A stretch of 64,000 nucleotides of DNA from Eutreptiella sp. 'Long Island Sound 2002' (taxonomy: Eukaryota; Euglenozoa; Euglenophyceae; Eutreptiales; Eutreptiaceae): assembly GCA_964036045.1 (NCBI GenBank), contig OZ038380.1, positions 186,508,298 to 186,572,297 on the forward strand, given 5' to 3'. Below the pieces are notes generated by a model. That model was not told the DNA's origin and did not search any database. It saw only the letters and a program-made list of their open reading frames with translations. Positions 18,402-53,472 of the stretch are shown here, one piece after another. The first letter of the stretch is position 1, and each line of letters starts with the position of its first letter. The position numbers were made by a program, and so were the translations under genes.

Positions 18402-20993
18402 TTAGTTCTTCGACACTTGAGCCCGCCACTCCCAAAGCTGCTTACACTGATGCAACTCAGCTGGCGAAAGTTGTTCCCCACATGCAGCCCGAGCATACGA
18501 CTGAGCCAAGCGAGTATCAACCTGCTCAGCCGAGTCAACCATATTGTGAATGTGTGCATGCAATTGATCATTATACGCGGCCTGCTGCGCACTCAGGCCC
18601 CCAGGAGCCTGATTCACGGTGGTTAGCGCATCTGAAAGCTCAAGGGCAGCATTTAGCTCTTCCTTCAGCGGCGGACCGCTACCCCTACCCTGACCCCTAC
18701 CTCTTCCCTTTGTAGCACCCTTTGGACCATCCCCTCGCTTAGCGGCCTTCCTGACAGTTGGCTGCACGGTTCGCTTGGCGGCCACCGGCGGGGGAACAGG
18801 TCGTGGTGCTTGTGCACCTGCCACATGGACCTGTGTGGAGGAGGCTCGCAAGTCCACAAATTGGTTCAGTAGCCTCTCCTCTTCTTCGAGAAAGGCCCCT
18901 GCATCCTGTCCCTGGTCGGAAAGATGAGTTGCCACTCGATCCACATTATTTATATATTGACGCATCCGGGACTGCAGGTTCCCAAGGGAGCGGACAATCT
19001 GCTCGCGTTTGCTTCTGGCTGGCAAATCAGCCCACGAGGAGATGTCGGTCACTATAATGTCATCGTCTGTAGCATGGATTGCCACGGGTACCTGCACTGT
19101 GGGTAGGGGGAGGCGTTGGCTGCTGCATTTGGCACTGACAAGGACCTGAGTTGCAGTCTGAAATTGTTTTAAAATAAAAATTGGATTGAACAACCCAAGA
19201 TGGAAGCCGACTGAAGATGACCGATGATGCAAAACAGCAAAATAGTGACGACATGGATGCCCGACTCGGACAGCAAGTCCACAACTACACCAAAACTTCG
19301 TATAGGCACCATCCTCAGCCAATGGCTGGAACAGACAAACATAATGTGGACAGTTCATGTAACGCGAAGTGCAGCTGGATTCACTTCGCTTTACCTCATA
19401 AACTATATTTTTGCCTTGGATTTGGTGCACACGATTGGAGATCGCACAGAATCTCGGTAGGTCTACCAACTCCGTCTCAAGTGAATCGTGACACTGTCGA
19501 TCATAGTTCCATAAGGGTGCCGCCCTGTTAGCAACTATATATTGGGCCTCCCTGGACATGTCATACTCATACACGAGGTACGCAGTTGAAGCATTCATCT
19601 GCTGGAGCATTCCATCAAACGCCCAGCTTGTCACCTCGCCTGAAACGAACTTGACATAGAATGGGAAGGTCTGGTTAGCTATTTGGTGATTGGCGTGCCG
19701 CTGATTCACCATTTCAGTATATTCAAGTTTATAGCCCTCCTTGGAGAGCAAGTGCAAAACAGATAAAAAAATGTGGTAGTAACCTTTTCTTGTGGTTAGG
19801 TGGCGCTTTATGCGGCAATTCAAAGACTCAGCCCTCTGTGTGGACTTGCAGCCGAAGGTAAAAACTTCTACCTGCCATGCAACACACCAAGGGTCAAGAC
19901 GATGTAGGGGGGATCTGACTCCAAGGTAGTCCTTGACAGTTTTCCAGCGGGGGTCCTCCAGAATTTTGCGCCAGAGAATATCAGCAGCGTCCTTATCTGG
20001 GCACTCCTGAACCTGTCGGATGGCGCTCTCAAGAGCAGTGAAATCGTGTTGCTCGAGGGAGTTTCGGCAGTTTTCGGTAAGATTTTTGTAAATGTGAAAA
20101 AGGCAGAGGAAGTGAGCAGTTCGGTCCGGGGGGAAAACCCTGTGAACGGACCCCAAGACGGCGTATGCAGCATCACTGAACAAAACGCGGGGTGCACAAC
20201 CGGTTGCCTTTATCCACTCCTGCCAGAGCCACTCATAATCCTCTGCATTTTCACTGCTTGGCATGCAGCCCTGAGCCAGGAGAAGGGTTTGGCCATGTTC
20301 GTTGATACCGCAAAACAGGGCTAATGCCTCGCCGTACCGATTCGATTTGTACGTGTTGTCTTCAAAAATGACTTGTGCATATTTTCTGGCGTTTTTTACT
20401 TGCTCTGGCGTCATAAAAAACCATCTTCGTACAACACCAGTGACTGGGTCAGGGGCTTCATGATTGAAATACCAGGCAGGATCTGCCTGTTTGAGCATTT
20501 TCAGGTGGTTAATCAAACGTGCAAGATCATTTGGGCCCATCTTGCGTTCGATGGACTTGAAAAAATTTCTGATGTGCTGGGTTGAAAACCCTTTGATCGC
20601 TGGGTACGCGTCCTCGCTATATTTCTTCCTCAAATTTATAAGAATTTGCTCCGGCATTTCACGGTGCTCATACGCCCGCTCAATGTCGTGCCAGAGCTCA
20701 TCAGGGAGGGACGATTTGTCCAGTGGGGGGGCCTCCTCCTCGTCAGGCCACCAATGGTCAGAGTGGTCCCAATTACACTCGGTTAGCGTCCACAGGCCCG
20801 TGCCAGCATCATGGGTTAGCGTTGCACCATATGGACACAAATCAGACTTCGTGAGAGGCCGGGGATGCTTTTCTGGGCGTGCTCTACTGGTCTCCTTTAG
20901 GGGCCCGTGTTGTTTTAGGCGTCCCCAAATGCGACAACCAATACGTGCCCAATTACTCCCCCCTGCAGACTTGCTGGTAACGCTGTTATGTAT
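18402..20993 (-). CDS. MULE transposase, 3' part (FAR1 zinc domain remainder, DDE core, SWIM finger)
   Basis: The open frame continues to a TAA at 18,402. Residue numbers here count from a fortuitous Met at 21,020 inside the LTR insert. Visible in order: C62...C82...H86-x2-H89, the second half of a FAR1/WRKY-GCM-like zinc domain; the MULE catalytic core with D221 (in EDNTYKSNRYG), D283 (in LFSDAAYA), a C/H pair (CLFHIYKNL, H309) and E398 (QRAESLN); a SWIM zinc finger C578-x-C580...C590-x-H592 (FWCSCGLAVRVGHPCRHYF); then an Arg/Gly-rich basic tail and a helical C-terminus. All three acidic residues are present. By family knowledge this enzyme binds the terminal repeats and catalyses cut-and-paste transposition in the nucleus. 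Its true 5' part is at 23,664-24,621, separated by an LTR-element insertion. Removing that insertion restores one frame. Confidence 0.9.
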   Translation of the reverse strand: MHNSVTSKSAGGSNWARIGCRIWGRLKQHGPLKETSRARPEKHPRPLTKSDLCPYGATLTHDAGTGLWTLTECNWDHSDHWWPDEEEAPPLDKSSLPDELWHDIERAYEHREMPEQILINLRKKYSEDAYPAIKGFSTQHIRNFFKSIERKMGPNDLARLINHLKMLKQADPAWYFNHEAPDPVTGVVRRWFFMTPEQVKNARKYAQVIFEDNTYKSNRYGEALALFCGINEHGQTLLLAQGCMPSSENAEDYEWLWQEWIKATGCAPRVLFSDAAYAVLGSVHRVFPPDRTAHFLCLFHIYKNLTENCRNSLEQHDFTALESAIRQVQECPDKDAADILWRKILEDPRWKTVKDYLGVRSPLHRLDPWCVAWQVEVFTFGCKSTQRAESLNCRIKRHLTTRKGYYHIFLSVLHLLSKEGYKLEYTEMVNQRHANHQIANQTFPFYVKFVSGEVTSWAFDGMLQQMNASTAYLVYEYDMSREAQYIVANRAAPLWNYDRQCHDSLETELVDLPRFCAISNRVHQIQGKNIVYEVKRSESSCTSRYMNCPHYVCLFQPLAEDGAYTKFWCSCGLAVRVGHPCRHYFAVLHHRSSSVGFHLGLFNPIFILKQFQTATQVLVSAKCSSQRLPLPTVQVPVAIHATDDDIIVTDISSWADLPARSKREQIVRSLGNLQSRMRQYINNVDRVATHLSDQGQDAGAFLEEEERLLNQFVDLRASSTQVHVAGAQAPRPVPPPVAAKRTVQPTVRKAAKRGDGPKGATKGRGRGQGRGSGPPLKEELNAALELSDALTTVNQAPGGLSAQQAAYNDQLHAHIHNMVDSAEQVDTRLAQSYARAACGEQLSPAELHQCKQLWEWRAQVSKN

Positions 20994-21894
20994 TGAAGCG
21001 GTATGGGGTGCTTCACCCATACCCGCTGCCCAGCCTGTGGCGCTCTTCGCCAGGCCAGATCAGGAATTTTCCTGTTGATGCTACGGCATCTTGATTTCTG
21101 TGGGATTTCTGTAAAATACCCCAGAAATCGTCATTTTACGTCTTTTCTGGACTGGCGACGACAGTCGTCGCCTGCGCGACGCAGCTCCAGAACGAGAATT
21201 TAACTCTCGATTTCTAAAGATTTTAGGCAATTTTATTATTGTTTTATCGTTTTTAGGAATAAAAGATTATAGCGTGACCTTTTTCGCGGCGTTCCGCGAA
21301 GGTCCATTTTTGCGAAAAGTGGCGCGTTCACGCATTTTTCAAAAAATGCTGAGGCGATTCCAGGAATCGCTCAGACGCCTATGGCGTAGCCCAACAGTGG
21401 GCCTTTTCATATGTAGGTTGAATTGGCACAGAAACGCGTCGCGTCGCTTACGCTACGCGTTGGGGGGAGACGCGCAAAATGAGTGTTTTTGACTCAAAAA
21501 TCATTTTATTTCATTGTTTTTCGCCCAAAAACCACTGGTTGGCCCAGTTTGGGCAGGATCTCAGTGGAGATCCTGATGGCGACGCCTCGTAGCCGTCAGA
21601 TTTTCTGATGGCGGCGACGCCGTCGCCTTCATTTCGTCTTCTTTTTTATGCTATTTTATAGTATAGAATTGTTACTTGTACATATTACTTGTCTACATAT
21701 TTTCTTTGTCTACATATACCTTCATCTCCTTGCCCAGGACGCCAGATTGTGCCATGGCCGAGGCAAGGATCACAGAATCCTTTGGACAATCGTGAATGCA
21801 AGTGGAAGACCCCGCCTTCATGGGTTTGGGGGTTTGAGGTGTGCATGCCGAAGGGAAGCTTCGAGGTCGCCCCCTCCCCCCCAAATATCCTTCA
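20994..21894 (+). repeat. Left LTR of the small retroelement
   Basis: 901 bp, repeated at 22,763-23,663. It contains palindromes such as GGCGACGACAGTCGTCGCC and a region rich in GCGACG. It supplies a fortuitous Met and ten codons to the downstream half of the broken transposase frame. Confidence 0.93.
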
Positions 21895-22762
21895 AAAGGA
21901 TTCTGCCGACGCCAAGGCCACCAAGGGCGTGTGACGGCCTGCGGACGGCGACGACGCCCAGACTGCAGGAGTACGCGGATCGCTGATCGCTGTTCGCTGG
22001 GAAACTGCAGGAGCTAAGGTCAAGGGCATCAACGCGATGAAGGACTCCGACGATGGATAAGACCATGGCTTCCCCATGGACCCTATGGAGCCCCCAAGTC
22101 CAGCTCGACGCAGCTGGGCGACGACCACAGCGACGACGACGACGTCTGCGAAGTGCACAAGAAGGCGCGTTAATTCGTCGCCTTGGGTTACCCTAAATAG
22201 GCGTGGGGCGCCTTGGGTAGGAAATGACCCTAAATCCCCCAAATTAGGTGCGTTAATTCGTCACCTTGGGTTGGGAATCGACCCTAAACTGGCACGGGTT
22301 GCCTTGGGCAGGAAATGGCCCTAAATTCAGGCTCGGTGGAAGGCCTTGCCTTGGGTTTGACCCTAAATAATTTTTTCCGAATTCTCCGAATTTATTGAAT
22401 TATTGATTTCCATGCCCATGGAGAAAAAGGGCCCATATGTGCGCCTAAGCGCCATCAGTCAGGGCGGAAGGCCCTGCAGCGCCCCTGGTTTGGTAACCAG
22501 AGGCTGAAAGGAGTGCCAGGGACCAGTGTTGTCGCCTGAGGGGCAATTGCCCTATGAATATTTCAAGATCAAAAAAAAAAAAATAAAAAAAAAAAATTTT
22601 TTTTACATGTGTGTGGTGCTTCCCCCCATGTAAATTACTCACGAAGCCCCCCCCCCCCACTGTTCTGATGAATCAGTATTGAAACCAGGACACTGCAGGG
22701 GTCAGAGCGCCTCCTTGGCCTTGCCTTCCTTTGGATATAGGCAAGGCTTCTAAGGAGGGGGG
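21895..22762 (+). other. Interior of the small retroelement, non-coding
   Basis: No gag or pol domain. It contains several CCTTGGG..ACCCTAAAT repeats (22,180-22,370), an A-run/T-run block near 22,568-22,605 and a C-run near 22,650, ending in the polypurine tract. Confidence 0.75.
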
Positions 22763-23663
22763 TGAAGCGGTATGGGGTGCTTCACCCATACCCGCTGCCC
22801 AGCCTGTGGCGCTCTTCGCCAGGCCAGATCAGGAATTTTCCTGTTGATGCTACGGCATCTTGATTTCTGTGGGATTTCTGTAAAATACCCCAGAAATCGT
22901 CATTTTACGTCTTTTCTGGACTGGCGACGACAGTCGTCGCCTGCACGACGCAGCTCCAGAACGAGAATTTAACTCTCGATTTCTAAAGATTTTAGGCAAT
23001 TTTATTATTGTTTTATCGTTTTTAGGAATAAAAGATTATAGCGTGACCTTTTTCGCGGCGTTCCGCGAAGGTCCATTTTTGCGAAAAGTGGCGCGTTCAC
23101 GCATTTTTCAAAAAATGCTGAGGCGATTCCAGGAATCGCTCAGACGCCTATGGCGTAGCCCAACAGTGGGCCTTTTCATATGTAGGTTGAATTGGCACAG
23201 AAACGCGTCGCGTCGCTTACGCTACGCGTTGGGGGGAGACGCGCAAAATGAGTGTTTTTGACTCAAAAATCATTTTATTTCATTGTTTTTCGCCCAAAAA
23301 CCACTGGTTGGCCCAGTTTGGGCAGGATCTCAGTGGAGATCCTGATGGCGACGCCTCGTAGCCGTCAGATTTCCTGATGGCGGCGACGCCGTCGCCTTCA
23401 TTTCGTCTTCTTTTTTATGCTATTTTATAGTATAGAATTGTTACTTGTACATATTACTTGTCTACATATTTTCTTTGTCTACATATACCTTCATCTCCTT
23501 GCCCAGGACGCCAGATTGTGTCATGGCCGAGGCAAGGATCACAGAATCCTTTGGACAATCGTGAATGCAAGTGGAAGACTTCGCCTTCATGGGTTTGGGG
23601 GTTTGAGGTGTGCATGCCGAAGGGAAGCTTCGAGGTCGCCCCCTCCCCCCCAAATATCCTTCA
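22763..23663 (+). repeat. Right LTR of the small retroelement
   Basis: Copy of 20,994-21,894 with about five substitutions (for example GCACGACG for GCGCGACG), preceded by the polypurine tract and followed by the GTAT target duplication. Confidence 0.93.
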
Positions 23664-24621
23664 GTATTGCCAACTCCCCCCGAATCTTATTCAGGTATGC
23701 AACAGCTTCGGTGTGGGACCGGAAGGTGCAGCCAACCTCGTCTCCACGTCGGGGGGAGTGCTCGGAGGGACAATGGGCTTCGCGTTTCACGCGTTTGCGG
23801 GGGGGGATGTCGGGATGAGGTTTAGGATCAGAACGTGGTGACTGGGCGGCACTAAACTCATGCTTAATTAAGGGGGCCGGATCCGTAGATTCCGTGGGTC
23901 CCGAGTCAGATGCCGGGGTTGGAGATAGGATGGCAGGGGGGTTTCTTACGGGGGCAGGTCTGGATGACACTGCCACTTCCGCGGGTTCCGTTTTGTCGTT
24001 GTCCAACATTGATGAAGAAACAGATCTCAAGGTCGCACAAAATGGATCGTCATATACACCCTCAAAAAGCAAGGTCATCTGGGCGGGGGTAGGGTGGCCC
24101 ATGGACGCGTGGAGGGACCGAAAGTTGGTTCGAAGGAAGTCTGCGGTTTGATCCTGCAGCGGGATGCAGTTCCATGCAACACCACCGCAGAGACGAAACA
24201 GGACAAGAACCCGTTCGTTACGGACCCAGTCACCGGTTCTGCTTGAAACTCTACAAATTCGCTGATCATGAACGGGCTCACCAGTGATGATCCTCACCAG
24301 ATCTGAGATGGCAGCCTCACTGATATCCTTAGGCACACACAGAACGAGGGTTCTGTCGGGGAGTGCCACGAAAATGGGGATCTCCTTCCTTGCACATGGT
24401 CCGTTGTGGAGTAGTTGACACGGTGAGCGTCTTCGCCGCCGTTGGTGGTGTCTACGATGCCTCCGATGGAGAAGGGAGAGAACAACAGCGGCAGAAACGA
24501 GACCACAAAGGACTATGGTCAGCCCCACAAGGCTCCAGCCGACATCGCAGATTGCGCAGAGCAAAAGCATTAAGATGGACATGTCTACAACGAGAGATGA
24601 ACGTGAGAGGCTAATCCCCAT
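23664..24621 (-). CDS. MULE transposase, 5' part: ubiquitin-like domain, NLS linker, start of FAR1 domain
   Basis: Minus-strand frame from Met at 24,621. Residues 80-147 (nt 24,384-24,181) align along the length of ubiquitin: IPIFVALPDRTLVLCV parallels the first beta hairpin, the stretch ending GEPVHDQRI parallels the helix and following turn, and VLVLFRLCGG parallels the C-terminal strand and Gly-Gly tail. A Ser/Pro-rich linker with a basic motif PPRKRVKREAH (likely NLS) follows, then TFRSHTEAVAYLNKI, the opening of a FAR1-type DNA-binding domain. The frame then hits the LTR insert; across the insertion site (one target copy removed) it joins the 18,402-20,993 frame exactly in phase, giving about 1,180 residues. 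The first 50 residues are hydrophobic and may be spurious: a strong 3' splice site (CTCTCGTTGTAG) just inside suggests the real start may be spliced. Confidence 0.78.
24181..24384 (-). other. Ubiquitin-like domain with C-terminal Gly-Gly within the transposase ORF
   Basis: Listed separately because of its importance. The pattern P-I-F-V-x-L...T-L-x-L-x-V...D-Q-R...L-V-L-F-R-L-C-G-G follows ubiquitin residues 2-76 with a shortened 46-65 region. The codons for the two glycines are at 24,186-24,181. Ub-like proteases of the Ulp class cut after such Gly-Gly tails, and the same transposon encodes an Ulp1-type protease. Confidence 0.72.
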
Positions 24622-24640
24622 TATTGATTCACAAAGGTCC

Positions 24641-26090
24641 TCTGATGCACGAACTTGATAGGCTACCCCCTGACTATTGGTTTACCAAGGGCCTCTGATG
24701 CACGAACTTGATAGGCTACCCCCTGACTGTTCATTTACTGGGGGCCTCTGATGCACGAACTTGATAGGCCACCCCCTGACTATTGATTTACCAGGGCCTC
24801 TGATGCACGAACTTGATAGGCTACCCTCTGACTATTGATTTACCACGGGCCTCTGATGCACGAACTTGATAGGCCACGCCCTGATTATTGATTTACCGGG
24901 GGCCTCTGATGCACAAATTTGATAGGCTACCCCCTGATTATGGAGTCAACAAGGGCCTCTGATGCACGAACTTGATAGGCTACCCCCTGACTATTGATCT
25001 ACATGGGGCCTCTGATGCACGAACTTGATAGGCTACCCCCTGATTATTGATTTTCCAGGGGCCTCTGATGCACGAACTTGATAGGCCACCCCCTGACTAT
25101 TGATTTACCAGGGGCCTCTGATGCACGAACTTGATAGGCTACCCCCTGACTGTTCATTTACTGGGGGCCTCTGATGCACGAACTTGATAGGCCACCCCCT
25201 GACTATTCACTTACCAGGGGCCTCTGATGCACGAACTTGATAGGCTACCCCCTGACTGTTCATTTACTGGGGGCCTCCGATGCACGAACTTGATAGGCCA
25301 CCCCCTGACTATTCACTTACCAAGGGCCTCTGATGCACGAACTTGATAGGCTACCCCCTGACTGTTCATTTACTGGGGGCCTCTGATGCATGAACTTGAT
25401 AGGCCACCCCCTGACTATTGATTTACCAGGGCCTCTGATGCACGAACTTGATAGGCTACCCTCTGACTATTGATTTACCACGGGCCTCTGATGCACGAAC
25501 TTGATAGGCCACCCCCTGATTATTGATTTACCGGGGGCCTCTGATGCACGAACTTGATAGGCTACCCCCTGGTTATGGAGTCAACAAGGGCCTCTGATGC
25601 ACGAACTTGATAGGCTACCCCCTGACTATTGATCTACATGGGGCCTCTGATGCACGAACTTGATAGGCTACCCCCTGATTTTTGATTTTCCAGGGGCCTC
25701 TGATGCACGAACTTGATAGGCCACCCCCTGACCATTGATTTACCAGGGGCCTCTGATGCACAAACTTGATAGGCTACCCCCTGACTGTTCATTTACCGGG
25801 GACCTCTGATGCACGAACTTGATAGGCCACCCCCTGATTATTGATTTTCCAGGGGCCTCTGATGCACGAACCTGATAGGCTACCCCCTGACTATTGATTT
25901 ACCGGGGGCCTCTGATGCACGAACTTGATAGGCTACCCCCTGATTATTGATTTACCGGGGGCCTCTGATGCACGAACTTGATAGGCTACCCCCTGATTAT
26001 TGAGTCAACAAGGGCCTCTGATGCACGAACTTGATAGGCTACCCCCTGACTATTGATTCACCCAGGGCCTCTGATGTACGAACTTGATAG
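24641..26090. repeat. 53-bp satellite array (left copy)
   Basis: About 27 head-to-tail 53-bp units of the form CTCTGATGCACGAACTTGAT + AGGCYACCCCCTGAYTATTGA + TTTACCAGGGGC. Unit variants (TTCATTTACTGGG; TGGAGTCAACAAG) recur about every 12 units, suggesting blockwise amplification. The same satellite occurs in opposite orientation at 48,840-50,890, at a similar distance from the other transposon end. Confidence 0.95.
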
Positions 26091-26124
26091 GTTACCGTCT
26101 GACTCATGTATGGCAAGACGTTGC

Positions 26125-26430
26125 CCTCCCCAGCCTTGAAGGATGCGGGGTGATGAGGGGGGGTGGAGGGGGAGGTGAGGGCTGAGCTGGGGGGGAGGGG
26201 AGGGAGAGGAGGGGGGAGGGTTAGGGGGCTTGGGGGGATTGGAGGGGGAATCGGGGGGGGCCCGGGATGGGAGGAGGGTGCGGGGGGGGGGGCGGGGGAG
26301 GAGGATGTTGGAAAAGCTGGAGGGGCGTAGGGGGGAGAGGGGTGGGGGGGCTTGGGGGGGTTGGAGGGGAGGTTTGGGAGGGCCCGGGGGGGGGGCGTAG
26401 GGGGGAGTAAAGCGGTAAAAGGGGGGAACA
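26125..26430. repeat. G-rich polypurine tract
   Basis: About 300 bp almost free of C and poor in T on the + strand, with many G runs of 5-10, so potential G-quadruplex or triplex DNA. The proline-rich minus-strand frames across it are composition artefacts. Confidence 0.85.
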
Positions 26431-29400
26431 CTGGGGCGTCTGATGTACGACGGGCATCAACTCAATTTGTGATTGAATCATGAATCATTCACAGGCCCGC
26501 GCACGACAGGCAAGGGAACGAAACAAATCAATAGCAGAAAGATTGAGCAAGTAAAATGTGCGAATCCAGTACATCATTTTCAAGGATCCACTAGCATTTG
26601 TTCACACATGGGTTAAACGGGAGAAACATATGGGGAGTCAGAATCAGGCTGATGACGACAACGCTAACTGACACTTATAAGCACGTGGGGGTAAACCATA
26701 AAAACTGGCCGGTAACCTGGAAACAAAACTCGCTGGCTGGGATTCGGCCCAGAGGGTGCCGTAGCTTGGTTATCGCCCCCCTGTAGGGGGACCCTCTGGC
26801 ACTCGAGGTTCCCGGGGTGTGACCACACAGGATCCGCACATCTGTGGCGTCACGTACCTTCCCCTAGCCTCGGTAGCTGCCTTACCTGCACTAATTGGCC
26901 AGCGCCGTTTCCCAGGTCCCTTCTGACCTGTTTTTAAGGTCAGGAACAAGGTTCACGCCCACTTACAACGTGGGTTGGGTCTGTATAATTCTCTTGAACC
27001 CATTTGGGTTCAAAATTCGAGTTCCCTTAACCGCACCCACGCAACTAAGAAGCAAACGACGCAAACGCACTGTAGCTGTGGTGTCTTTGTAGCCTGTATC
27101 AGCCATTACTCTCAAGGTTGGACAAAGGAAAAGGGTTCGGTCTGGTCAAACCAGTCAAATCAGACGAAATGGGGTAGATCTGAATAATACTCTTGAGGCT
27201 AAAAAAGGGCGTGTTGTAACAACACCTGCGGTAACAGAAACCAGTACGTGTACCTGCAATCTGTGTCACCTGGTGAAACCAGATGGAAAGTAAGCAATGG
27301 GATCCGGTCAAGATCAGGTCAAATGAGACGAAATAGGGTGCCCTTTGGCTCCAAAAAATGAACAAACACCCCAATAGCGCCAAAGAGAAAGTCACAGGGC
27401 TAGACAAGCGCGTATCAGGTAGGAGGTCAGTAGGAGGTCAAACAGAAGCGTAGACAACAACAACCATGCAAATACAACATGCATGTGTAGCGTAGAAGAA
27501 GAAACATTCGATAGACTGCAGACAATACAATAGACACCCCTGCAACAATAGTCAGTATCAGCAGTCAACTACAACAGAACATACACAGAGCACCATACTG
27601 TATGGTAACATGTGCAGTGGCATTTCAGTTGCCAGGTGCTGTGTTGCTGTCCTGACTGGTATTTGTATCTGCATGTAAAAGAGTATGTACTGGTACGTCA
27701 GCATGGTAAATGATACTGGGTACATACAATACCAAAGTAAACAATAACCAAAACAACACAACCAAAACTGCAGATGAATAGACACTCAGACAAAAAAAAA
27801 TAAGATCTGTCAAAAAAAATTCAATCTCCATGTAGCACTCGGCTGACACCGTTGCTGTCCTGTTCTGCCGGGGGGGGGGGGTAGTGATCAGTTACCACAG
27901 CGTCACGTCTGACGTGTCCACCTGCCCCTATCTACAGGAGCTGCTCTATAATAATATGGTAATCTGTTCTGGCTGGGAACACCCCAAGCCGGCGTTCACA
28001 AGCCAAAAAACTATACAGCAACACAGCGTCAGCAACAGGGAAAGGCAGCCACCTTTCCAGCAAAAACTGGACGCAACAGCGCCAACAACAAGTAAAAGCC
28101 AAACTCATTCACAGCTCAGCATGCAAGCATCCAGCAAGCAACATCATGCAATCACCACAAGCAAGACAATCAGGCCCTACATCAGAGCCACTGGCACAAA
28201 CATTCAAGTCAAGATCCAATACAAGCAATCAAATCAAACCAATCCTTCAGGTAACAAATGACAAGCTCAAGTAAATCAATGATGGGAGGGTACAAGGAAA
28301 AAAAACTTCAGCTCCTGTATGAAATCAGGGCTGCATTATTGATAGTAGACGGACCGCAAAACACGCAGGGCCCGTCTGCAAGCAAGCATGCAAGCAATTC
28401 ATCAGCATCTCACATCAAATCAGTGATTCAACCTTAAACACGAAGTAAAAATAAAATCAGACAAGACAAAACAGATAAACAAACAGCCAACCAAAATCGC
28501 TGACAAAAGTATCCTACCCTCCAGCCTGCACTCTACTACCCTGCAGAACCTTGTAAAGGTTTAAGATTTTGATGCTTCCTCGTTTGGTTCTCCGCCTCAG
28601 AGACTCCGTCCGCAGGTTCTCCCTCGATGCTCAAAACAGGCGAAATTCACCGGTTCCGATCGGCAGCGGACGCTGTTCACGCATTCAGGCGACAGGTGCC
28701 AAGAGAAGGGCTGAGGCATTCACAGAGTAGCAATGCCTTTAACAGTACTGCTCTCTGTGGCACCAACAAAAAGTAACACACCACAAAGCGATCAGAAAAA
28801 TTAATACTAATAATCGCAACAGTCGAAATTCTCTGGAACACCCAACATTTAGCTGCAGCTTGTATATCTCCTCCGGCTTGTCGGTGGGCCGTTCTTGTCG
28901 TCAAGGCTTTGACGGGCGAACTCAGCGGCGATAACTTCAGCGGCGCCAAGGTTGTTGATCATCGTGTAGCCTCTTTGCAACACTGACCAGTGCCGCTAAT
29001 GACGGCGGCCACAACACTGCTCATGGTGGTGATGGCGGCGCTGTTGTTTGCCGCTGCGCGCAGCGCTGGAGGTTCGCTACGGCGCCGTTGTGGATGGAAT
29101 CTTAACGGCGACCATGGGCAGCATCGATCCTGCGAAACAAACCTATTGTGACAGCGTTCACAGCCGCTTCGTCGCTGGCTTCCAAAGCAGTTCCTCCGTG
29201 GCGGTGTCATCAGCTCCATCTGCGGGAATCAAAGCACTGATAACGCATCGCTCAACGGCATCGCTGGCGGTCAGACGACATAACATGTTGATGCCGTTGT
29301 TCCGGATTGGGCTGGCAGCTGTCAATAGGTCCAGAGCTCGACAGAGTTCTTCGGCAGCTTCGGCGATGCACTTGACCTTGGAGATGGAAATGTCGTACAG

Positions 29401-32657: not shown

Positions 32658-32740
32658 CTGAATACAAACAGCAAGGATCAGAGTTAAATTCTCAAGAAGC
32701 ACAGCAGCAGAAGAAAACACTTACGCATGCAATTACATAC
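32658..32740 (-). other. Remaining native intron of the J/Ulp1/SET gene (3' portion)
   Basis: Between the SET exon's 3' splice site and the retrotransposon insertion. Without the insertion the intron would be about 85 bp and start GTATGTAA, a strong donor. Confidence 0.7.
32737..32740. repeat. Left 4-bp target duplication (ATAC) of the gypsy-type element
   Basis: Matches 48,610-48,613. On the minus strand it is GTAT, the first four bases of the interrupted intron. Confidence 0.85.
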
Positions 32741-44537: not shown

Positions 44538-45663
44538 ACTCAGGCGTTATCCTGTCCATCCTCCTGCATTTGCCTTATCCTGACCGTGGCGTGGTTTGGC
44601 ACTCTGTTCTGAGTGTGTTTACACGCCTATTTACCCAAGTTGTTGCTTGTTTTTCTGCCCTCCAGGATATGTGCATCTGTATGTTAAGTGTCATCAGCCC
44701 ATCGCTGAGGAATGGACTGTTTTTCACCACGAATCGGGATACAGAGGCGCCTTGAGTCGCCGTGTACATATCCTTACAGCCTGGTCCAGCCTGGACCAGT
44801 ACTTGATTACAGATTCTACTGTTTGAGTGCCCGTGATACCGTGTTGCCCTATTCGCTGTGATGTGTGGAGATCCTGATGGCGCCAGGCGGGAAGCCCAGT
44901 TGCCTGACTACACTCCCAGCGGTCCGCCACTGTCAGTCCCAGTGTGAGCCTACCGATTCGCAGACGCACTTGCATTCGGATGGCGGCCTCCGGTGCTCCT
45001 GACCTCGGTCAGTCTGCCTGGGAAACTGGTGGTTTGAGGAGTCGACGCCTCCGCCCACACTGCATGAGGACTCCCTCATGTATGGCCACGCTTCGTGGCA
45101 GTAGGGCGAGGGAAAAGACGGCCTTGATGCCCGATCCCTTCAGGAGGAGTTCCCTTACGATTTGGGGTTCGTAAGGAGTTCGACTATGGCACTCTGGACT
45201 CGCGTCGTATGGATATGGACATGGTGCGCCCGAGGAAGGACCCGTGGGGACTCTCCCCAGTCGGCGGGCCTTGGGAAGCTTTGGGTAGCCTGATGGATCT
45301 TTGTGGTCGCTCTCGACTTGTGGGGCCACCTCGGCCGTCGTGTGACGCCTATGTTGGCCGTGTATGCCACTGCCACTGTGGTGGTGACCGTAGCAGCCGG
45401 CACCCGGTGCGCCTTGTATGGGTTAACGGGTCCTTTGGATGCCGAACAATCGCCGCCAGGACCCGGGACTTGATACTTGATACTATACATGTGCTACAAG
45501 CTGTTACAGCAGCATACCTATCCCACTGTGGGATACCTATCTTACTGTGACATACTGAGGTGAGGATGTGACACACCCCCCCCCTTCAGGAAGTGGTCCT
45601 GGGTACCCGCTGCCATGCGTGGGTGTTATCGAGCCCCCCCAGGGTTTGCTCTAAGGAGGGGGG
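44538..45663 (+). other. Retrotransposon 3' non-coding region and polypurine tract
   Basis: 1.1 kb after the premature pol end, with no integrase remnants in any frame I read. It ends in AAGGAGGGGGG (45,653-45,663), the plus-strand primer immediately before the right LTR. Confidence 0.7.
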
Positions 45664-48609
45664 TGAAGCGGTACCCAGAACCCCATGGCCAGGTTACGGC
45701 ATACAACCGGTCTCCGGTCCACTAACCCCATGCACGGCGTGTTCCGTGCCGTGAAGCCCCGCATCGGCAACCGATGCACCGCCAGCGGAGATTTGTGTAT
45801 CAGAATATCAGGAATCAACAGGGTTTTATTTTCATATTGTTTCCGTCAATTTTTACGCTTCCGTTCCGATACTCACTATTTTGACTGCTGGCGGTTGGTT
45901 CGCGACTTTACCGTAACCGCCAGTTTAACTGTTTATAATGGAAATTTTAACGCTATCCGTCACGAAGGCTCCAAAGTCGCCAGGAACTGCATGGATGCTT
46001 CCGCAATTTTCATAATTAATACTCGCAACCTTAATCCGAATTTTTCAGGATGTCGAAATCGGATTTTCGACTTCGACATCCCCGCACTTGATTTGACCTC
46101 TTTCGAGTGGACCTACGTGCTTCCGTATGCACGAATCAACTTCCCTTTTATCCTGCCCTCCATTTGTCTTAAAGATATGGGCAAAACAAAGTTGATTCGT
46201 GAGGCCACTTGTGAAGGTCATATCTCGTGCCGCTTGCGAGTATTGACGATAAGGAAACGTGGGATGTATTCACAATACTCCCGACGTAATTTAGGAAGCA
46301 TTATATGCCTTGCGTTTCCACACGTGCGCGCTAGTGTAATGGATCATGGTCAAGAGGGTAGAGTTTGCGTTATAACTCTTTGGCCATGACATTGCGTGTG
46401 TTAAGATAACTTTCGAGTGTAGCGCGCAAGTGTTGGTGTTGCATAGGAACTCTCCTTGAGTTCCTATGAGCGATTGACACAAAGTTACGCCCTTGGAGGG
46501 GCATGACATATCGTGGTGGGAGCCACCTTTTTAGGCAATATGGAGTATGTGCCTTGTGTTGTGTTGCGTGCCCATTTGGCGGGTCCATTACTCCAAGCCA
46601 AGCCCGCCAATGGACCTCATATTGTGCAAGCCCCTTCTCCATACTCCCTACGGTCAATTGCAAGCCTAACCTTCGTGAAGGGAAGCTTGTGTGGTGAACC
46701 CGAAGCGATGCGTTGGGAGCAAGGTGTGTATTTTGGAATTTTCCATATTTTCATGTGCCCACTTGGGAAGCAGCGCTCGTAACCTTTCAAGGCGCCCCAA
46801 GTGGAGCACATATGTGGGATCGAAGGTCATTGGTGTCAAGTCATGGTGTTTAGAAGGATTAAGTGATTGCACGATCCAAGCCAAAGATATTATAATATAA
46901 TTGTGCACCTTTCAATGCACTTTTGTGTGTCTTTGTGCCAATTTTGCCGTTTTTGGCCCGTCATGATGTCAAGTGGCGACCTTGTATTTCAACGTTGCGC
47001 TCAATTGACATCATGACCCAAGTATGACCTGAGGGTACGTACTTCGGTGCCAAACATATCTTGGACCCGGCGAATAACTCCTCTTAGGCTTGGCATACCG
47101 TGGCCGCCATGTTGGCGATTTGGGACTATCCCAAATCATGGGCTCACTTGGCGACCCTGCCATTCCCAATATTGGAGGAGTTGGGCGACGCCCAAAAGAT
47201 ATGTTGGACCAACATGACTTGATACCAATCCTATGGCACACTCCGGTCCGAGTCGGGCATGTGCCTCATTTGCCCCAACCATGAGTGTGCGCATTTTTGG
47301 CCATTTTGAGCATTTTTCCACTTTTGCTGCCCGCCGTGCACTATGTTCTAACCCTCGTGCACGCCGGACGCATGGACCAATGGACCATATATGACATGGG
47401 TGTTATGGGTAATGGTCCCCATGGTCCATGCACCACGTGGGCGAAGCGGAGCCGCCTTCGTCAAGGCGCTAGGCCAAATTGAGTATGGGCAATTTTGCCA
47501 TTTTTGCATTTGTGGACCCAATCGGGATCGTCACCACGCCGAGTGGCATGGAGATCTTTGAGAGCCAAGGGCATGGGAGTCTCCGTTGGACTCCCGGTGG
47601 ATCGCGTATGGAGTGACGGATCCGATCTCCAAGCCGGCGTGGAGATATGCTATTGGGAGCACACCGAATTTTGGCTCATTTCAAGCAGCCAAAATGACCC
47701 AATTTTGGGACCCCAATTTCCCCCTTCCGTGTGGTCAATTGGCGGCCCCATTTCTCTAAGCCCATAGGGAGCCCGGACCTAAATCCAAGTTGTACACTCA
47801 GATATAAGTCCTAGGTCCTGCCTCCTACCCTGTGAGCCATTGGCCTCACCTTGGCCGAGCGAGCCGCGCGTGGGAATGACGCCAATTTTGGTGATTTTGG
47901 CATCATGACCCCACTTGACTCATCTGTGTTGCCCTGATGCCGGGACCTCAAAGGGAACCAGGTTGGGTGAGGGCTCCAGGGAGTTCGTACTCGAAGGGCA
48001 TAGGGTCAGTTGCCTCGTCCCTACCTCTGGCTGGTCCGGACGAGGGGTCAATTTTGGGGATTTTTGAGTTAATTTCAGTTTGGGCTGAAACAGCCCATTT
48101 TCAGCTACCAACTCCTGGGTGATAATGGCGGGGCCATATCTCTGGCTCAGAGAGGAGTTGGGACCTGCCGTTAAGGGAGCATAGGGAGCCACTGTCGGTT
48201 GGCCTTGGAGCCCATTGGTTCCCAGGAACTCGCCTGTGGCTGTGCGGGACACCTCTCCCATTGGCAGGGTTTCAGGGTCCGGACTGAGCAGGGCATGGGT
48301 TGTGTTTGAGCCCCCGCCCCTGCCAGCCACTGAGAGGGTCGGACCTGGGATTGGGATATGAGTTGGGACTGAGTGTCTATTGTCCCTTGATGCCCTTACC
48401 CCAGTCCAGTCTTAACCCCATGTGTACATATCCTGATGTGTTGCTGTACATACTTTCGTTCCCTCTTTGCAGAGTGGCAAGGATTCTGAAACGCTTTGTC
48501 ACATGACACAGGCGTATTGATGCCCTTGTGAGCGTAGTGCCTTGCCTGCCTGCTCACCTGTGCGTGTCACCGCAGCGTCCCGTGGCCGGCCCCCCACGGG
48601 AACGCGTCA
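45664..48609 (+). repeat. Right LTR of the gypsy-type element
   Basis: 2,946 bp, about 99.6% identical to the left LTR; differences include GACCTG for GATCTG near 47,027 and GGAGCCCATTGGTTCCC near 48,212. Confidence 0.95.
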
Positions 48610-48613
48610 ATAC

Positions 48614-48790
48614 CAAGGGCTCTCACATCCCCTCGGTGCAGGTCCCAGGACGCCTTCCTCTTCTTCTCCCGCTGCGGCTTCTCCCTGTGCACCGCCGTCC
48701 TCAACCAATCCTCCCCCTCGTCCAACTCCCACCCGGCCAGCAGCTCGGCCGCCACCTCCTTCGTCGTCTCCGACACTGGACTCGCAGGAC
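48614..48790 (-). CDS. J/Ulp1/SET gene, exon before the SET exon
   Basis: 177 nt. 3' splice site CTGCACCTATAG ends at 48,791; 5' splice site after 48,614. Phase 1 at both ends. Encodes PASPVSETTKEVAAELLAGW..., an acidic then Lys/Arg-rich segment. The original donor G|GTATGTAA is now G|GTATTGAC because the gypsy-type element inserted with GTAT as its target duplication. Confidence 0.65.
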
Positions 48791-48899
48791 CTATAGGTGC
48801 AGGCATATGGTTTCGTTTATGAGGGTCTTTGTGAATCAGTAATTAGGGGGTAGCCTATCAAGGTTGATCATCAGTGGTGTTGTGCAATCAGTGGCAGAC

Positions 48900-48980
48900 C
48901 TGCTTCTGCCCCTTCACCCTCCGCTTCTGCTCCTTCTTCGCCCTCCTCCGCTGCTTCCTCCACTTCGGCTTCAGCTGCAC
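48900..48980 (-). CDS. J/Ulp1/SET gene, short acidic exon
   Basis: 81 nt between 3' splice site CTCTGATCCAG and 5' splice site G|GTCTGC, phase 1 at both ends. Encodes AAEAEVEEAAEEGEEGAEAE-like sequence, continuing the Glu/Ala-rich linker. Confidence 0.6.
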
Positions 48981-49259
48981 CTGGATCAGAGGATGTGCGT
49001 TCTAATGCAAGGACCAGCCTAGCAATGTCGTGCATCAGGGGCGGTAAATCAATAGTCAGGGGGTAGCCTATCAAGTTCGTGCATCAGAGGCCCCCTGCAT
49101 CAGAAGTGCCTTTGGAACTGTTGATGTGTTGACCAGGATCGCGGTGGTGGTAATGGGTGGTGACTGTGGGACTCGTCAGATGGCGGGTGCGAGAGGGGCT
49201 AAGATGGGTCGGGGTGTGTTGATTGGGCAATGGCCTGTGCCGCCCGAGGGGTGAAGCAC

Positions 49260-49427
49260 CTGCAGCGGCTTTCTTCTCCGCCTCCAGCTTGGCTGCCTCG
49301 TCTGCAGCGGCTTTCTTCTCGGCCTCCAGCTTGGCTGCCTCGTCTGCAGCGGCTTTGTTCTCGGCCTCCAGCTTGGCTGCCTTGTCTGCAGCGGCTTTCT
49401 TCTCGGCCTCCAGCTTGGTTGCCTTGT
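49260..49427 (-). CDS. J/Ulp1/SET gene, coiled-coil repeat exon (4 units)
   Basis: 168 nt, exactly four 42-bp units encoding the 14-residue repeat KLEAEKKAAADEAA. 3' splice site CTCGTGCTGCAG, donor G|GTGCTT, phase 1 both ends. Nearly identical to the exon at 50,104-50,313, within a duplicated module (49,097-49,600 versus 49,941-50,486). Confidence 0.65.
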
Positions 49428-50103
49428 CTGCAGCACGAGGAACAGATGGATGGGGCAGGGGGTTGCATGGGTGATGGCACAGCAAGCGGAGGAGGAGGGC
49501 GGACGGGGGTCCGGGAGTATACGACGCAGAGGGTAAACCAATAGTCAGGGGGTAGCCTATCAAGTTCGTGCATCAGAGGCCCTGGGTAAACCAATAGTCA
49601 GGGGGTGGCCTATCAAGCTCGTGCATCAGAGGCCCCCGGTAAATCAATAGTTACGGGCAGGCCTATCAAGTTCGTGCATCAGAGGCCCTGGGTAAACCAA
49701 TAGTCAGGGGGTAGCCTATCAAGTTCGTGCATCAGAGGCCCCTGGCAAATCAATAGTCAGGGGGTAGCCTATCAAGTTCGTGCATCAGAGGCCCCTGGCA
49801 AATCAATAGTCAGGGGGTAGCATATCAAGTTCGTGCATCAGAGGCCGCTGGCAAATCAATAGTCAGGGGGTAGCCTATCAAGTTCGTGCATCACAGGCCC
49901 CCGGTAAGTCAATAGTCAGGGGGTAGCCTATCAAGTTCGTGCATCAGAAGTGCCTTTGGAACTGTTGATGTGTTGACCAGGATCGCGGTGGTGGTAATGG
50001 GTGGTGACTGTGGGACTCGTCAGATGGCGGGTGCGAGAGGGGCTAAGATGGGTCGGGGTGTGTTGATTGGGCAATGGCCTGTGCCGCCAGAGGGGTGAAG
50101 CAC

Positions 50104-50313
50104 CTGCAGCGGCTTTCTTCTCCGCCTCCAGCTTGGCTCCCTCGTCTGCAGCGGCTTTGTCCTCGGCCTCCAGCTTGGCTGCCTCGTCTGCAGCGGCTTT
50201 GTTCTCGGCCTCCAGCTTGGCTGCCTCGTCTGCAGCGGCTTTCTTCTCGGCCTCCAGCTTGGCTGCCTTGTCTGCAGCGGCTTTCTTCTCGGCCTCCAGC
50301 TTGGCTGCCTTGT
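50104..50313 (-). CDS. J/Ulp1/SET gene, coiled-coil repeat exon (5 units)
   Basis: 210 nt, five 42-bp units of KLEAEKKAAADEAA type; same splice signals and phase as the downstream copy. Predicted charged helix that could be a rigid spacer or dimerisation segment between the protease and SET parts. Confidence 0.65.
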
Positions 50314-50937
50314 CTGCAGCACGAGGAACAGATGGATGGGACAGGGGGTTGCATGGGTGATGGCACAGCAAGCGGAGGAGGAGGGCGGACGGGGGTCCGG
50401 GAGTATACGACGCAGAGGGTAAACCAATAGTCAGGGGGTAGCCTATCAAGTTCGTGCATCAGAGGCCCTTGGTAAATCAATAGTCAGGGGGTAGCCTATC
50501 AAGTTCGTGCATCAGAGGCCCCCGGTAAATCAATAGTCACGGGGTGGCCTATCAAGTTCGTGCATCAGAGGCCCTGGGTAAACCAATAGTCAGGGGGTGG
50601 CCTATCAAGTTCGTGCATCAGAGGCCCCCGGTAAATCAATAGTTACGGGCAGGCCTATCAAGTTCGTGCATCAGAGGCCCTGGGTAAACCAATAGTCAGG
50701 GGGTAGCCTATCAAGTTCGTGCATCAGAGGCCCGTGGCAAATCAATAGTCAGGGGGTAGCCTATCAAGTTCGTGCATCAGAGGCCCCTTGCAAATCAATA
50801 GTCAGGGGGTAGCCTATCAAGTTCGTGCATCAGAGGCCGCTGGCAAATCAATAGTCAGGGGGTAGCCTATCAAGTTCGTGCATCAGAGGCGTAGTAATGT
50901 AGTGTCACAATGTAGTGTCGTGCATTTCCTGGCAAAC

Positions 50938-51135
50938 CTGCAGGGAGTTCTTGTGGCGATTCCTGCTCCGTCTCTTCTCCTCTTGCTTCCTCTCCGGCTG
51001 GTGCTGGTGCTCCTTCTGCCGCTTCTCCTCCCGCTTCTTCCGCAGCGGCGACTTCCTCCGCTGCTCCTCCTTCCGCTGCCTCCACACCTTCCACGTTGCC
51101 TGCTTCCGGCTCTCTTGGCTCCTCCGTCTTTGGCA
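50938..51135 (-). CDS. J/Ulp1/SET gene, Glu/Ala-rich exon
   Basis: 198 nt encoding PKTEEPREPEAGNVEGVEAA... and similar acidic sequence. Preceded by CGCCTACAG (an alternative CCAG lies slightly upstream in the same phase), followed by GCAG|GTTTGC. Phase 1 both ends; the intron to the protease exon is about 73 nt. Confidence 0.65.
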
Positions 51136-51208
51136 CTGTAGGCGACGATGGGAGGACTGCTGCTGGCATGCATCGCCGAGACGCTCGCCCAACAGTGATA
51201 TATCATAC

Positions 51209-52421
51209 CTTCCTCTTCTGCCATCTTCACTTGTTCCTCACGACGGGCAGGCATTGTGGATACTGAAGAAGGGGTTCTAGAATCCGGGAAGAGCGCACGA
51301 TCGGGAACTACATCCGTATGCAGCAGACGTACTCTTCTGTGCCAATTACGTAAAATATTCCTACGGTCTAAGTCGCTTAGTTCTAGCGATAGAGGTGACA
51401 AATCAACCTCGCTACCGCCTAAAACAAGGGAAACGACCCACTCTGCACCACAGCACGCAAACACTGCACACGACCAACCATCTGGCTGATGTACACAGTG
51501 AAATTTCTTAAGGTTCGGGTCGGTAGAGAATGGCCATGGCTGGTGCTGGTTATGCACCTGCCAATGCCGCTTAAGAAGGTCCCACAGAACGGTTCCGCGC
51601 TGTTGCCGTTGGGCAGAATCCGGACACAGAGAATCCAGAATCCACACTTCAGGGGACGAGAGCAGATGAAGAAAAACTGCCACCCACCAGTGCCCCTGCT
51701 CGCCACAGACCAAAATAAACCAATCGAGGGCAAAGAGGTTTTCCTTCTGTGGCAAGCACTTTTTCCGCCAAAGGGTAACAGGCCAGACCCTTCGCTGGAG
51801 GCCGAGTTTCCGATGGAGGAGCAAATTCATGAGTTGCACTCGAATTTCAATCAAATTATCTCCGATCCAACGATCACCCCCCAATTGTTCCGTTATTTCA
51901 CGGTTTGTCAACAAAATGCCTAGGACTTTGATGCCATCTACCCCAGATGCAGGGCCCTCGGCAGGAGATGGGGTGTCGTCGGCATCAATATATTCCGGGT
52001 GAGGAGGTGAGGAGGTTGAAGTTGGCTCAGGGCTAATGGGTCCGTGCAGCGCACTGGTGCCGGGGTTAGCAGCTTGCATGGGCTCCGGAGATTCCACGTC
52101 GGCCATTGATGGCCACCAAACGTGTTCACGCGGCCAAAGAGCAGGGTCATCCCCTAAATCTTCCCCCCGTGGTGCAACGAGGCCGTTCAATTGAGCCTCG
52201 TACAGCCGTCGGCTATCCCCACAAAGGATGTCTTTCGCCCCATTGATTCTCTGAATGACACCGATGTCAAACCTCTGAGCCCACAGCACCAGTTTCCGAT
52301 ACCGTTTTTTAACGACGGCCTCATCGGCCCCACGCGGCAGACCTAGCAGTTCATGAGCCCACGGACGGCTCATGTCAAGCTGCTCCAAAACGGGCTGGCG
52401 GGCATCGTGGGTATCCTCTCA
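51209..52421 (-). CDS. J-like domain plus Ulp1-type (C48) cysteine protease exon
   Basis: Open frame ending at donor GAAG|GTATGA (51,209). Numbering from codon 52,388: residues 8-68 resemble a J domain (HELLGLPRGADEAVVKKRYR, INGAKDIL, RRLYEAQL) but lack the HPD motif, so Hsp70 stimulation is doubtful. After a Pro/Ser-rich linker comes an Ulp1-like peptidase at about 160-345: W174-I-G-D (substrate-groove motif), H233 in GHWWVAVF, D252 in VWILDSL, Q301 and C307 in QPDGWSCAVFACC, giving the full catalytic set. By family it hydrolyses after the Gly-Gly of ubiquitin-like proteins. A same-frame TGA separates it from the upstream frame; a 54-nt GT-AG intron (GTGAGAGG...ACATGAG) could remove it in phase. 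Confidence 0.82.
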
Positions 52422-53246
52422 CCCTACTTGTGCCTGCACTCGGGCCCAAAGATCGGCCTTGTTTCGCAAGGAGAGGAAAGAGATTGCTGTCTGGGTGAGC
52501 TCGCCCCGCTCTTCGGCCTCCTGGAGGAAAAAATCCTGCACCTTTTTTCGAAAAGGAGAGTCCCCTAAGGATGCGACCCACGTTTCCAATTTTTGGATAC
52601 AGTCACGGAGTTCCATTTTCTCCGTGCACTTGTGGATCTGTCTCTTTACCTCATCCCAATCTTGGGACAGATCTATATCACCAATACTAGACGGCCCCGA
52701 TGAAGCCGTCGAAGATTGAGAAGGTTGTGAGGTTTGTTGGCTTGACGTAGGCGTCAAAGTAAGAGGGGTAGAAGGGGTGGGGAGCTCTGGTGAAGAGGAC
52801 GTTTGGGAGGTGAACTCGCCTAGATCCGGCATGTCCAGATTTGGGGGTGTTTGCGAAATCCCTTCGTCTTCCGCGTCGTCCAACATCACCTCTGCTTCTG
52901 GGTCAGGTATGGCCTCGGCTGCAACCGGTTGGTCTGACGGCTGGGATGGGTTAGGCTTCAGGTCAGGCTTTGGGTCAGGCTTCGCGCTTTGGGACTCAGG
53001 TTTGGGTGTGGAGATGGGCGCAGAGGTTAGTACTTGGTGCCCACCCTCGGGCGTGAGTGTTTGTACCTCGGCTTGCGAGGCAAAGGAAACGCTCCGCTTC
53101 TTATGCTTTTGTGGGCCAGGCACGCTCCCCATTAAATCCATCAGCGATGGCCCTTCCGCTGCCATGGCTGCAGCATATGCCGTTGCCTTGGCCTTCTTTT
53201 CATCGGAGATTGGTGTCTTCGGTGGCATTCTAGAAGTGCACGTCAT
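52422..53246 (-). CDS. N-terminal frame of the J/Ulp1/SET gene (or separate upstream ORF)
   Basis: 274 residues from Met at 53,246 (a second Met, MPPKTPISDEKK, at 53,228 is equally plausible). Lys/Ala-rich start, a long Pro/Ser/Thr-rich region, then a helical segment DLSQDWDEVKRQIHKCTEKM...RKKVQDFFLQEAEERGELT. No recognised domain. It ends in TGA in the same frame as the J/Ulp1 frame 11 codons on, so it is either the first exon of that gene or a separate short protein. Confidence 0.55.
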
Positions 53247-53382
53247 GATCCAGGCGATTGGGGTTGAAAGCCGGTGCGTGCATCACAACTGAGGGCTTGG
53301 GTTGTCACACACGGAACGCGTAACGTGTCAACCTGTACCAACTCCCTTCAAGCGGAAGTCCACACCCTCCTTCTCAATATGT

Positions 53383-53383
<1 letters not shown>

Positions 53384-53416
<33 letters not shown>

Positions 53417-53436
53417 GTATGTATGTATGTATACAG

Positions 53437-53472
<36 letters not shown>

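What the first reader, a model, noticed from the sequence alone, without database searches (positions are those of the whole stretch)
18402..53246. Transposon-encoded ubiquitin-like domain (Gly-Gly) fused to the transposase, plus an Ulp-type protease in the same element
The transposase frame begins with a domain following ubiquitin through to VLVLFRLCGG (24,384-24,181). The second gene encodes an Ulp1/C48 peptidase with H, D, Q and C in place. C48 enzymes cut after Gly-Gly of ubiquitin-like proteins. The pair suggests that the transposase is made as a Ub-like precursor, cleaved by its own protease, and that the freed modifier may be conjugated. Plant MULEs with captured ULP-like sequences are known (Kaonashi group). 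I know of no described Ub-like/transposase fusion with a partner protease, so the novelty is inference.
Basis: partly seen in the sequence, partly recalled or inferred. Interest (0 to 1): 0.95.

Follow-up and report, generated by a model that had tools for sequence, protein, structure and literature searches.

The report
Three-gene Mutator transposon, ubiquitin-like extension
A large Mutator-type jumping gene of a 2.3-Gb eukaryote carries a transposase with an extra front part that ends like ubiquitin, plus a ubiquitin-protease-like gene and a SET-like gene; that the protease cuts the transposase at that point is possible but not shown.

Summary
The window holds one copy of a MULE DNA transposon (16157-56776, minus strand; 67-bp TIRs; 9-bp target duplication), broken by a Gypsy element and by a short LTR element inside the transposase gene. 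Copies in the same genome show the plan: Ulp1/C48-like gene, SET-like gene, transposase, on one strand, 16-18 kb. The transposase frame (1,201 aa) does begin with the noticed domain, and most copies read end it in RLRGG (window: RLCGG). C48-like gene and transposase lie together far above chance (24 of 51 within 50 kb; 0.2 expected). So 'same element' is confirmed. 'Ubiquitin-like' is only suggestive: with the domain alone as query, PDB hits are nearly all ubiquitin-like domains (E 0.03-0.4) and the tail is identical, but Pfam finds nothing, a home-made ubiquitin profile scores it no better than an L23 profile, and low-confidence models look like ribosomal protein L23. Gly-Gly is kept in nearly all copies read, but copies drift neutrally, so this shows no selection. 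New here: three SUMO-acceptor consensus sites behind the domain, a second possible substrate for the protease. Verdict: a new variant of ULP-carrying MULEs; processing at Gly-Gly is untested.

The parts
16157..56776 (-). whole MULE element of the window, with nested insertions
   Evidence: TIRs and target duplication; colinear with full copies
56703..56769 (-). 5' terminal inverted repeat, 67 bp (7 further bases CGGTGAC, a doubled end, at 56770-56776)
16157..16223 (+). 3' terminal inverted repeat, 67 bp
16148..16156 (.). 9-bp target site duplication (CCCCGCGAT on the minus strand)
   Evidence: 9-bp duplications also in copies c9 and c16
56777..56785 (.). 9-bp target site duplication, other side
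50883..53282 (-). Ulp1/C48-like gene with a weak J-domain-like stretch; first Met 53246; in-frame TGA at 52419-52421 in this copy; 819 aa open in copies c15 and c10a
   Evidence: PDB 1euv (yeast Ulp1) E 0.011; DnaJ E 0.0086, under its cut-off
51690..51692 (-). putative catalytic His
   Evidence: aligned with Ulp1
51633..51635 (-). putative catalytic Asp
51486..51488 (-). putative oxyanion Gln
51468..51470 (-). putative catalytic Cys
48615..48806 (-). probable first exon of the SET-like gene (starts MPAPIGPASP); in copy c15 followed by a GT...AG intron in phase with the SET-like frame; here the Gypsy element sits at its end
30109..32691 (-). main frame of the SET-like gene; one in-frame stop at 31954-31956 here, 862 aa open in c6, c15 and c10a
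   Evidence: PF00856 E 6.5e-4, 20.5 bits against a cut-off of 22.4
24385..24621 (-). stretch from the first Met (residue 21) to the domain; hydrophobic if translated, but pyrimidine-rich, so it may be non-coding
   Evidence: Kyte-Doolittle maximum 2.5 at residues 50-68
24181..24384 (-). ubiquitin-like-looking domain, residues 100-167 of the transposase frame
24181..24195 (-). RLCGG here, RLRGG in most copies read
23785..23994 (-). part of the linker with SUMO-acceptor consensus lysines (residues 230, 273, 299); the first motif is lost in this copy (NDKTE)
20994..23663 (.). short LTR-type insertion splitting the transposase frame, about 1-kb direct repeats, target duplication ATAC; not part of the MULE
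18402..20993 (-). rest of the transposase, with the MULE domain at about 20369-20082
32741..48610 (+). nested Gypsy element, repeats 32741-35687 and 45664-48610 (99.6% alike); not part of the MULE

Best explanation
It is a three-gene, TIR-bearing MULE. Its Ulp1-like protease most likely acts on ubiquitin-family groups carried by the element's own transposase: by cutting after RLRGG, which frees the transposase from its N-terminal extension, and/or by removing SUMO from the three psi-K-x-E sites just behind it. Shown: one element, gene order, one open frame, RLRGG in most copies read, clustered SUMO consensus sites, Ulp1-type residues. Inferred: that the domain folds like ubiquitin, that either reaction occurs, and that the element's protease rather than a host enzyme does it.
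For: Element with TIRs and 9-bp duplications; three frames open in c15 and c10a, two of the four copies whose frames were listed; C48-like gene within 50 kb of 24 of 51 transposases, 22 of them upstream on the same strand, random mean 0.2, maximum 3 in 200 placements; RLRGG; PDB hits to ubiquitin-like domains; yeast Ulp1 as best PDB hit of the protease domain; three psi-K-x-E among the five lysines of linker 168-310, shuffle mean 0.05, P of 3 or more 5e-5; none in the fetched pieces of another MULE family of this genome (4 of 4).
Against: No Pfam ubiquitin or C48 hit; a genome search with PF02902 scored all 55 candidates and none of its 46 matches lies within 20 kb of the 90 listed copies of this gene. 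With the full-length protein Ulp1 is only second in PDB (E 0.089, behind an unrelated lectin, 0.066), and a profile of its relatives finds nothing there. Models of the domain look like L23. No purifying selection seen on the domain. The SUMO motif was looked for after the fact. The stretch between the first Met and the domain may not be translated, in which case the start of the protein is unknown.
Confidence: 0.42

Rival explanations
1. The ubiquitin likeness is chance. The domain is another small alpha/beta fold (the models look like ribosomal protein L23) serving as an ordinary N-terminal extension, and the protease has other targets.
For: AlphaFold models match ribosomal chains, several named L23; ubiquitin and L23 profiles score alike (169 and 167 of 20,000 shuffles reach the score); without RLRGG, L23 scores above ubiquitin (50 and 44); no Pfam ubiquitin hit; the domain would be about 8 residues shorter than ubiquitin (68 against 76).
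Confidence: 0.3
2. Like VANC/Kaonashi proteins of plant VANDAL MULEs, the protease and the SET-like protein act on host chromatin or silencing factors, not on the transposase.
For: Some VANDAL MULEs carry a Ulp1 domain in the anti-silencing gene VANC (PMC13317346, passages read); SET is listed for 14 oomycete MULEs (table in PMC6446971, passages read); here both kinds sit in one element.
Against: No sequence link to VANC was tested; it does not explain RLRGG or the SUMO-site cluster in the transposase.
Confidence: 0.2
3. Host deubiquitinases, not the element's protease, cut behind RLRGG, as they do in ubiquitin-ribosomal protein fusions.
For: The tail equals ubiquitin's; the best PDB hit is such a fusion protein (9bh5); tandem host ubiquitin genes exist.
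Against: Would leave the linked protease unexplained.
Confidence: 0.15

Closest known systems
ULP1-carrying Mutator-like elements (Kaonashi/KIU in VANDALs; melon, rice, grapevine, maize, hydra, lancelet), from PMC2836005, PMC13317346 and PMC6117577 (passages read)
   Same: MULE transposase and a Ulp1-type protease gene in one element; Kaonashi is one of three genes in its MULE (PMC13317346)
   Different: Kaonashi MULEs are called non-TIR there, although the table in PMC6446971 lists TIRs of 46-174 bp for VANDAL. This element has an N-terminal ubiquitin-like-looking extension on the transposase and a SET-like gene; no ubiquitin-like part of a MULE is mentioned in the passages read.
Ginger1 transposons with a C-terminal Ulp1 or OTU domain (PMC2836005, passages read)
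   Same: a transposase linked to a ubiquitin-family protease; its authors propose that the pathway serves transposition
   Different: other transposase superfamily; the protease is a domain of the transposase; no ubiquitin-like substrate domain mentioned in the passages read
MULE-Phytophthora_1 elements with SET (table in PMC6446971, passages read)
   Same: MULE with SET
   Different: no protease or ubiquitin-like domain mentioned there (0 occurrences of ubiquitin, Ulp1, C48 and protease in its main text)
Ubiquitin-ribosomal protein fusions (PDB 9bh5, UBL-1-eS31)
   Same: N-terminal ubiquitin-like domain ahead of another protein; best PDB sequence match
   Different: host gene; here the domain is shorter, diverged and has up to 79 residues in front of it

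Membership tests
Mutator-like elements (MULE) | MULE transposase domain PF10551 over its cut-off | tested here: met
   63.3 bits against 27.6
Mutator-like elements (MULE) | terminal inverted repeats with 8-11 bp target duplication | tested here: met
   67-bp TIRs and 9 bp in the window, c9 and c16; 8-11 bp is from PMC6446971 (passage)
Mutator-like elements (MULE) | SWIM-type zinc finger behind the catalytic domain (many MULE groups, not all) | tested here: inconclusive
   CSCGLAVRVGHPCRH is present; Pfam SWIM only E 1.6
Ubiquitin-like proteins | beta-grasp fold | tested here: inconclusive
   predicted order strand-strand-helix-strand-strand suits it, but the low-confidence models match L23-like chains
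Ubiquitin-like proteins | significant sequence match to the family | tested here: not met
   no PF00240 hit listed at E up to 10; PDB E 0.028 to 0.42; hence not filed as a member
Ubiquitin-like proteins | C-terminal Gly-Gly | tested here: met
   RLRGG in P0001; G67 65 of 69 and G68 69 of 69 of the copies read that hold the domain
Peptidase C48 (Ulp1) | His-Asp-Gln-Cys in the order and setting of Ulp1 | tested here: met
   aligned with yeast Ulp1 1euv, E 0.011
Peptidase C48 (Ulp1) | match to the Pfam C48 model | tested here: not met
   hence called C48-like, not filed as a member
Peptidase C48 (Ulp1) | cleavage behind Gly-Gly of a ubiquitin-like protein | not testable with these tools
   needs an assay
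SET domain proteins | SET model over its cut-off | tested here: inconclusive
   20.5 bits against 22.4, E 6.5e-4; all 14 PDB hits at E up to 10 are named as methyltransferases, SET proteins or LegAS4-type proteins, best E 0.034; the usual NHS motif (recalled) is not seen
Kaonashi/VANDAL MULEs | lack of TIRs (as said in PMC13317346) | tested here: inconclusive
   this element has 67-bp TIRs, but PMC6446971 lists TIRs for VANDAL, so the feature does not define the group
Kaonashi/VANDAL MULEs | VANC-type anti-silencing gene | not tested
   no VANC sequence was compared

The most novel reading that the evidence does not exclude
The transposase is made as a membrane-anchored, inactive precursor: hydrophobic segment, ubiquitin-like domain ending in RLRGG, then a linker with SUMO sites and a basic NLS-like run (RKRVKR), then the DNA-binding and DDE parts. 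The element's own Ulp1-like protease cuts behind RLRGG and strips SUMO, releasing an active nuclear transposase: a self-contained precursor-and-protease switch in a DNA transposon. (Lowered from 0.12 to 0.08 on checking: one search shows that this element has introns, so the pyrimidine-rich hydrophobic stretch may not be translated.)
Probability: 0.08. Interest if true: 0.9.

Novelty: new variant of a known kind. Interest (0 to 1): 0.57.

Why it matters
Ulp1 proteases have been known in MULEs for years; a 2026 review still calls their function there unknown (PMC13317346, passage). An element that carries such a gene together with a candidate cut site (RLRGG on its transposase) and a cluster of SUMO-acceptor consensus sites makes the question testable with two proteins. 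If cleavage occurs, it would be a new way to control a transposase; if only SUMO is removed, it would explain why such proteases are kept.

Tried and rejected
Rejected: that the window shows two unrelated genes; 15.9 of the 26.2 kb between them is a nested Gypsy element. Rejected: that Gly-Gly conservation among copies proves function; changes look neutral, and the catalytic-core control has no power either. Subfamily comparison: 45 fixed differences, dN/dS 0.27 in the core (3 N, 3 S), 0.71 in the domain (4 N, 2 S), too few to decide. Protein searches found only relatives of 82% identity or more; viral contigs none. The PF00240 search of the own genome listed strong ubiquitin matches, not this domain (103; 150 of 659 candidates scored). 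The four pieces fetched from other top MULE hits turned out to be one family without the extension. A profile of the C48-like relatives against PDB: no hit. L23-like chains led both fold searches; no ubiquitin was among the 50 rows shown of each. The full window frame as PDB query gave two unrelated hits. A ThiS profile gave no signal. The species was not identified. Paper searches for a ubiquitin-like domain fused to a transposase or retroelement, or for such MULEs: 23, 39, 57, 58, 96, 111, 115, 122; none seen in the listings.
Full report
1. The element. The window is part of a 190-Mb contig of a 2.28-Gb eukaryote genome of unnamed species. A search with the transposase frame 18402-21059 scored 51 of 3,836 candidate places; all 51 are near copies. 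Around seven of these I fetched neighbouring DNA and compared it with the window and with each other. The copies end in 67-bp inverted repeats beginning CGGTGACGGTATGCAGACTGCGG; c9, c16 and the window copy are each flanked by a perfect 9-bp duplication (the other four were not tested for it). The window copy spans 16157-56776 on the minus strand.

2. The genes. Of the four copies whose frames I listed, c15 and c10a have three long frames open on one strand: a C48-like gene (819 aa), a SET-like gene (862 aa) and the transposase (1,201 aa); in c6 the first is frame-shifted, in c9 it is cut short. Of the remaining three, c10b and c16 lack the SET-like gene and part of the C48-like gene, and c22 has the transposase alone within the stretch fetched. 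The window copy is dead: a Gypsy element lies at 32741-48610, a 2,670-bp LTR-type element at 20994-23663, and stops interrupt the C48-like and SET-like frames. The PDB search with the C48-like domain gives yeast Ulp1 first (E 0.011), then unrelated beta-galactosidases (E 0.14), with His, Asp, Gln and Cys aligned; with the full-length protein Ulp1 comes second (E 0.089) behind an unrelated lectin. Pfam C48 does not recognise the gene: one search scored all 55 candidates and lists 46 matches, none within 20 kb of the 90 listed copies. The SET-like frame has 20.5 bits against a cut-off of 22.4. It has no Met before residue 290, but in c15 an upstream exon starting MPAPIGPASP is followed by a GT...AG intron that joins it in phase to the SET-like frame; the same exon stands at 48806 in the window, and the Gypsy element sits at its end. 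So the element has introns.

3. One element, one strand. With 90 scored C48-like places (of 14,386 candidates), 24 of the 51 transposases have one within 50 kb, 23 on the same strand and 22 upstream on the same strand; random placement gives 0.2 on average and at most 3 in 200 trials. In L006 an internal deletion joins both genes. Both lists are cut off, so the count is a lower bound.

4. The domain. Residues 100-167 of the common frame read EIPIFVALPDRTLVLCVPKDISEAAISDLVRIITGVPVHDQRICRVSRRTGDWVRNERVLVLFRLRGG. The window differs at three places (GEP, SRT, RLCGG); two of the common residues are nearer to ubiquitin (GIP, RLRGG). Of the 51 copies, 49 hold the domain (L006 and L054 do not); G68 is kept in 49 of 49, G67 in 47, R66 in 47. 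A short query scored 150 of 208 candidates with the domain, down to 87% identity. With 20 of these 150, taken from the lower-scoring ones, added to the 49, G68 is kept in 69 of 69, G67 in 65, R66 in 65.

6. Selection. Among 69 copies the domain and 15 following codons show 117 amino-acid and 42 silent distinct changes against 114.2 and 44.8 expected from the observed spectrum; changes shared by three or more copies are 17 to 2, which is not what constraint would give. In the older copies the domain has 16 to 8 shared changes; the catalytic-core control, for which 16 of 20 pieces aligned, has 7 to 4 and no clear constraint either, so the test has little power here. Gly-Gly conservation therefore says nothing for or against function.

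7. What stands around the domain. Upstream, the first Met (residue 21) is followed by a stretch that would be hydrophobic (Kyte-Doolittle 2.5 at 50-68) and then Arg-rich; the Mets are at 21, 34, 38 and then 194, behind the domain. So a product that includes the domain would include the hydrophobic part, unless splicing removes it; since introns exist in this element and the stretch is pyrimidine-rich, I leave this open. Downstream, the linker 168-310 has three psi-K-x-E SUMO-acceptor motifs on its five lysines (shuffle mean 0.05, P 5e-5; the whole protein has 4, P 0.006). Older copies L092-L095 keep 3, 3, 3 and 2 (those of L093 in two frames); the window copy has lost the first. The fetched N-terminal pieces of another MULE family of this genome have neither the extension nor such motifs (4 of 4, one family). 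The motif was looked for late and because of the Ulp1-like gene.

8. Mechanism. I think it most likely (0.42) that the protease acts on ubiquitin-family groups of the element's own transposase, by a cut behind RLRGG, by removal of SUMO from the linker, or both. Rivals are chance likeness (0.3), host chromatin as the target, as for VANC/Kaonashi (0.2), and processing by host deubiquitinases (0.15).

9. Known or new. Ulp1 in MULEs and Ginger, and SET in oomycete MULEs, are in print (PMC2836005, PMC13317346, PMC6117577, PMC6446971; passages read). Searches for a ubiquitin-like domain fused to a transposase found none in their listings; most subscription papers are not in that library. The element is a new variant of a known kind; the self-processing reading would be new but is unproven.

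Noticed in passing
30109-32691 and 48615-48806 (-); c15: SET-like gene in the same MULE, with a probable first exon and a short GT-AG intron; best PDB hits are Legionella LegAS4-type and SET proteins (E 0.03-0.04 for the best two).
   Followed up: partly
52284-52355 (-): Weak DnaJ-like stretch (PF00226 E 0.0086, under cut-off) ahead of the protease domain in the C48-like gene, apparently without the usual HPD motif (recalled).
   Followed up: no
49170-49450 and 50100-50320 (-): Two similar stretches between the C48-like and SET-like genes that encode repeats of KAAADEAAKLEAE type in one frame; possible further exons or decayed gene pieces.
   Followed up: no
20994-23663: Short LTR-type element with about 1-kb direct repeats and target duplication ATAC inside the transposase gene; no frame of 300 aa or more was listed inside it apart from the transposase pieces.
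   Followed up: partly
24600-26200 and 50500-50880: 53-bp tandem repeats (GCATCAGAGGCCC...) between the genes of the element, and 21-bp repeats behind the transposase (16358-18270) that are open in several frames.
   Followed up: no
own genome: Other frames with a true Pfam C48 match, several of 1,182 aa (C1:84247907, C11:30342262, C571, C528), look like another repeated family with a Ulp1 domain.
   Followed up: no
1-10070 and 12007-13638: Tandem arrays with a period of about 184 bp, about 84-95% alike in the rows shown.
   Followed up: no
own genome C15:29319398-29378821: Long arrays of tandem ubiquitin matches, probably polyubiquitin genes.
   Followed up: no
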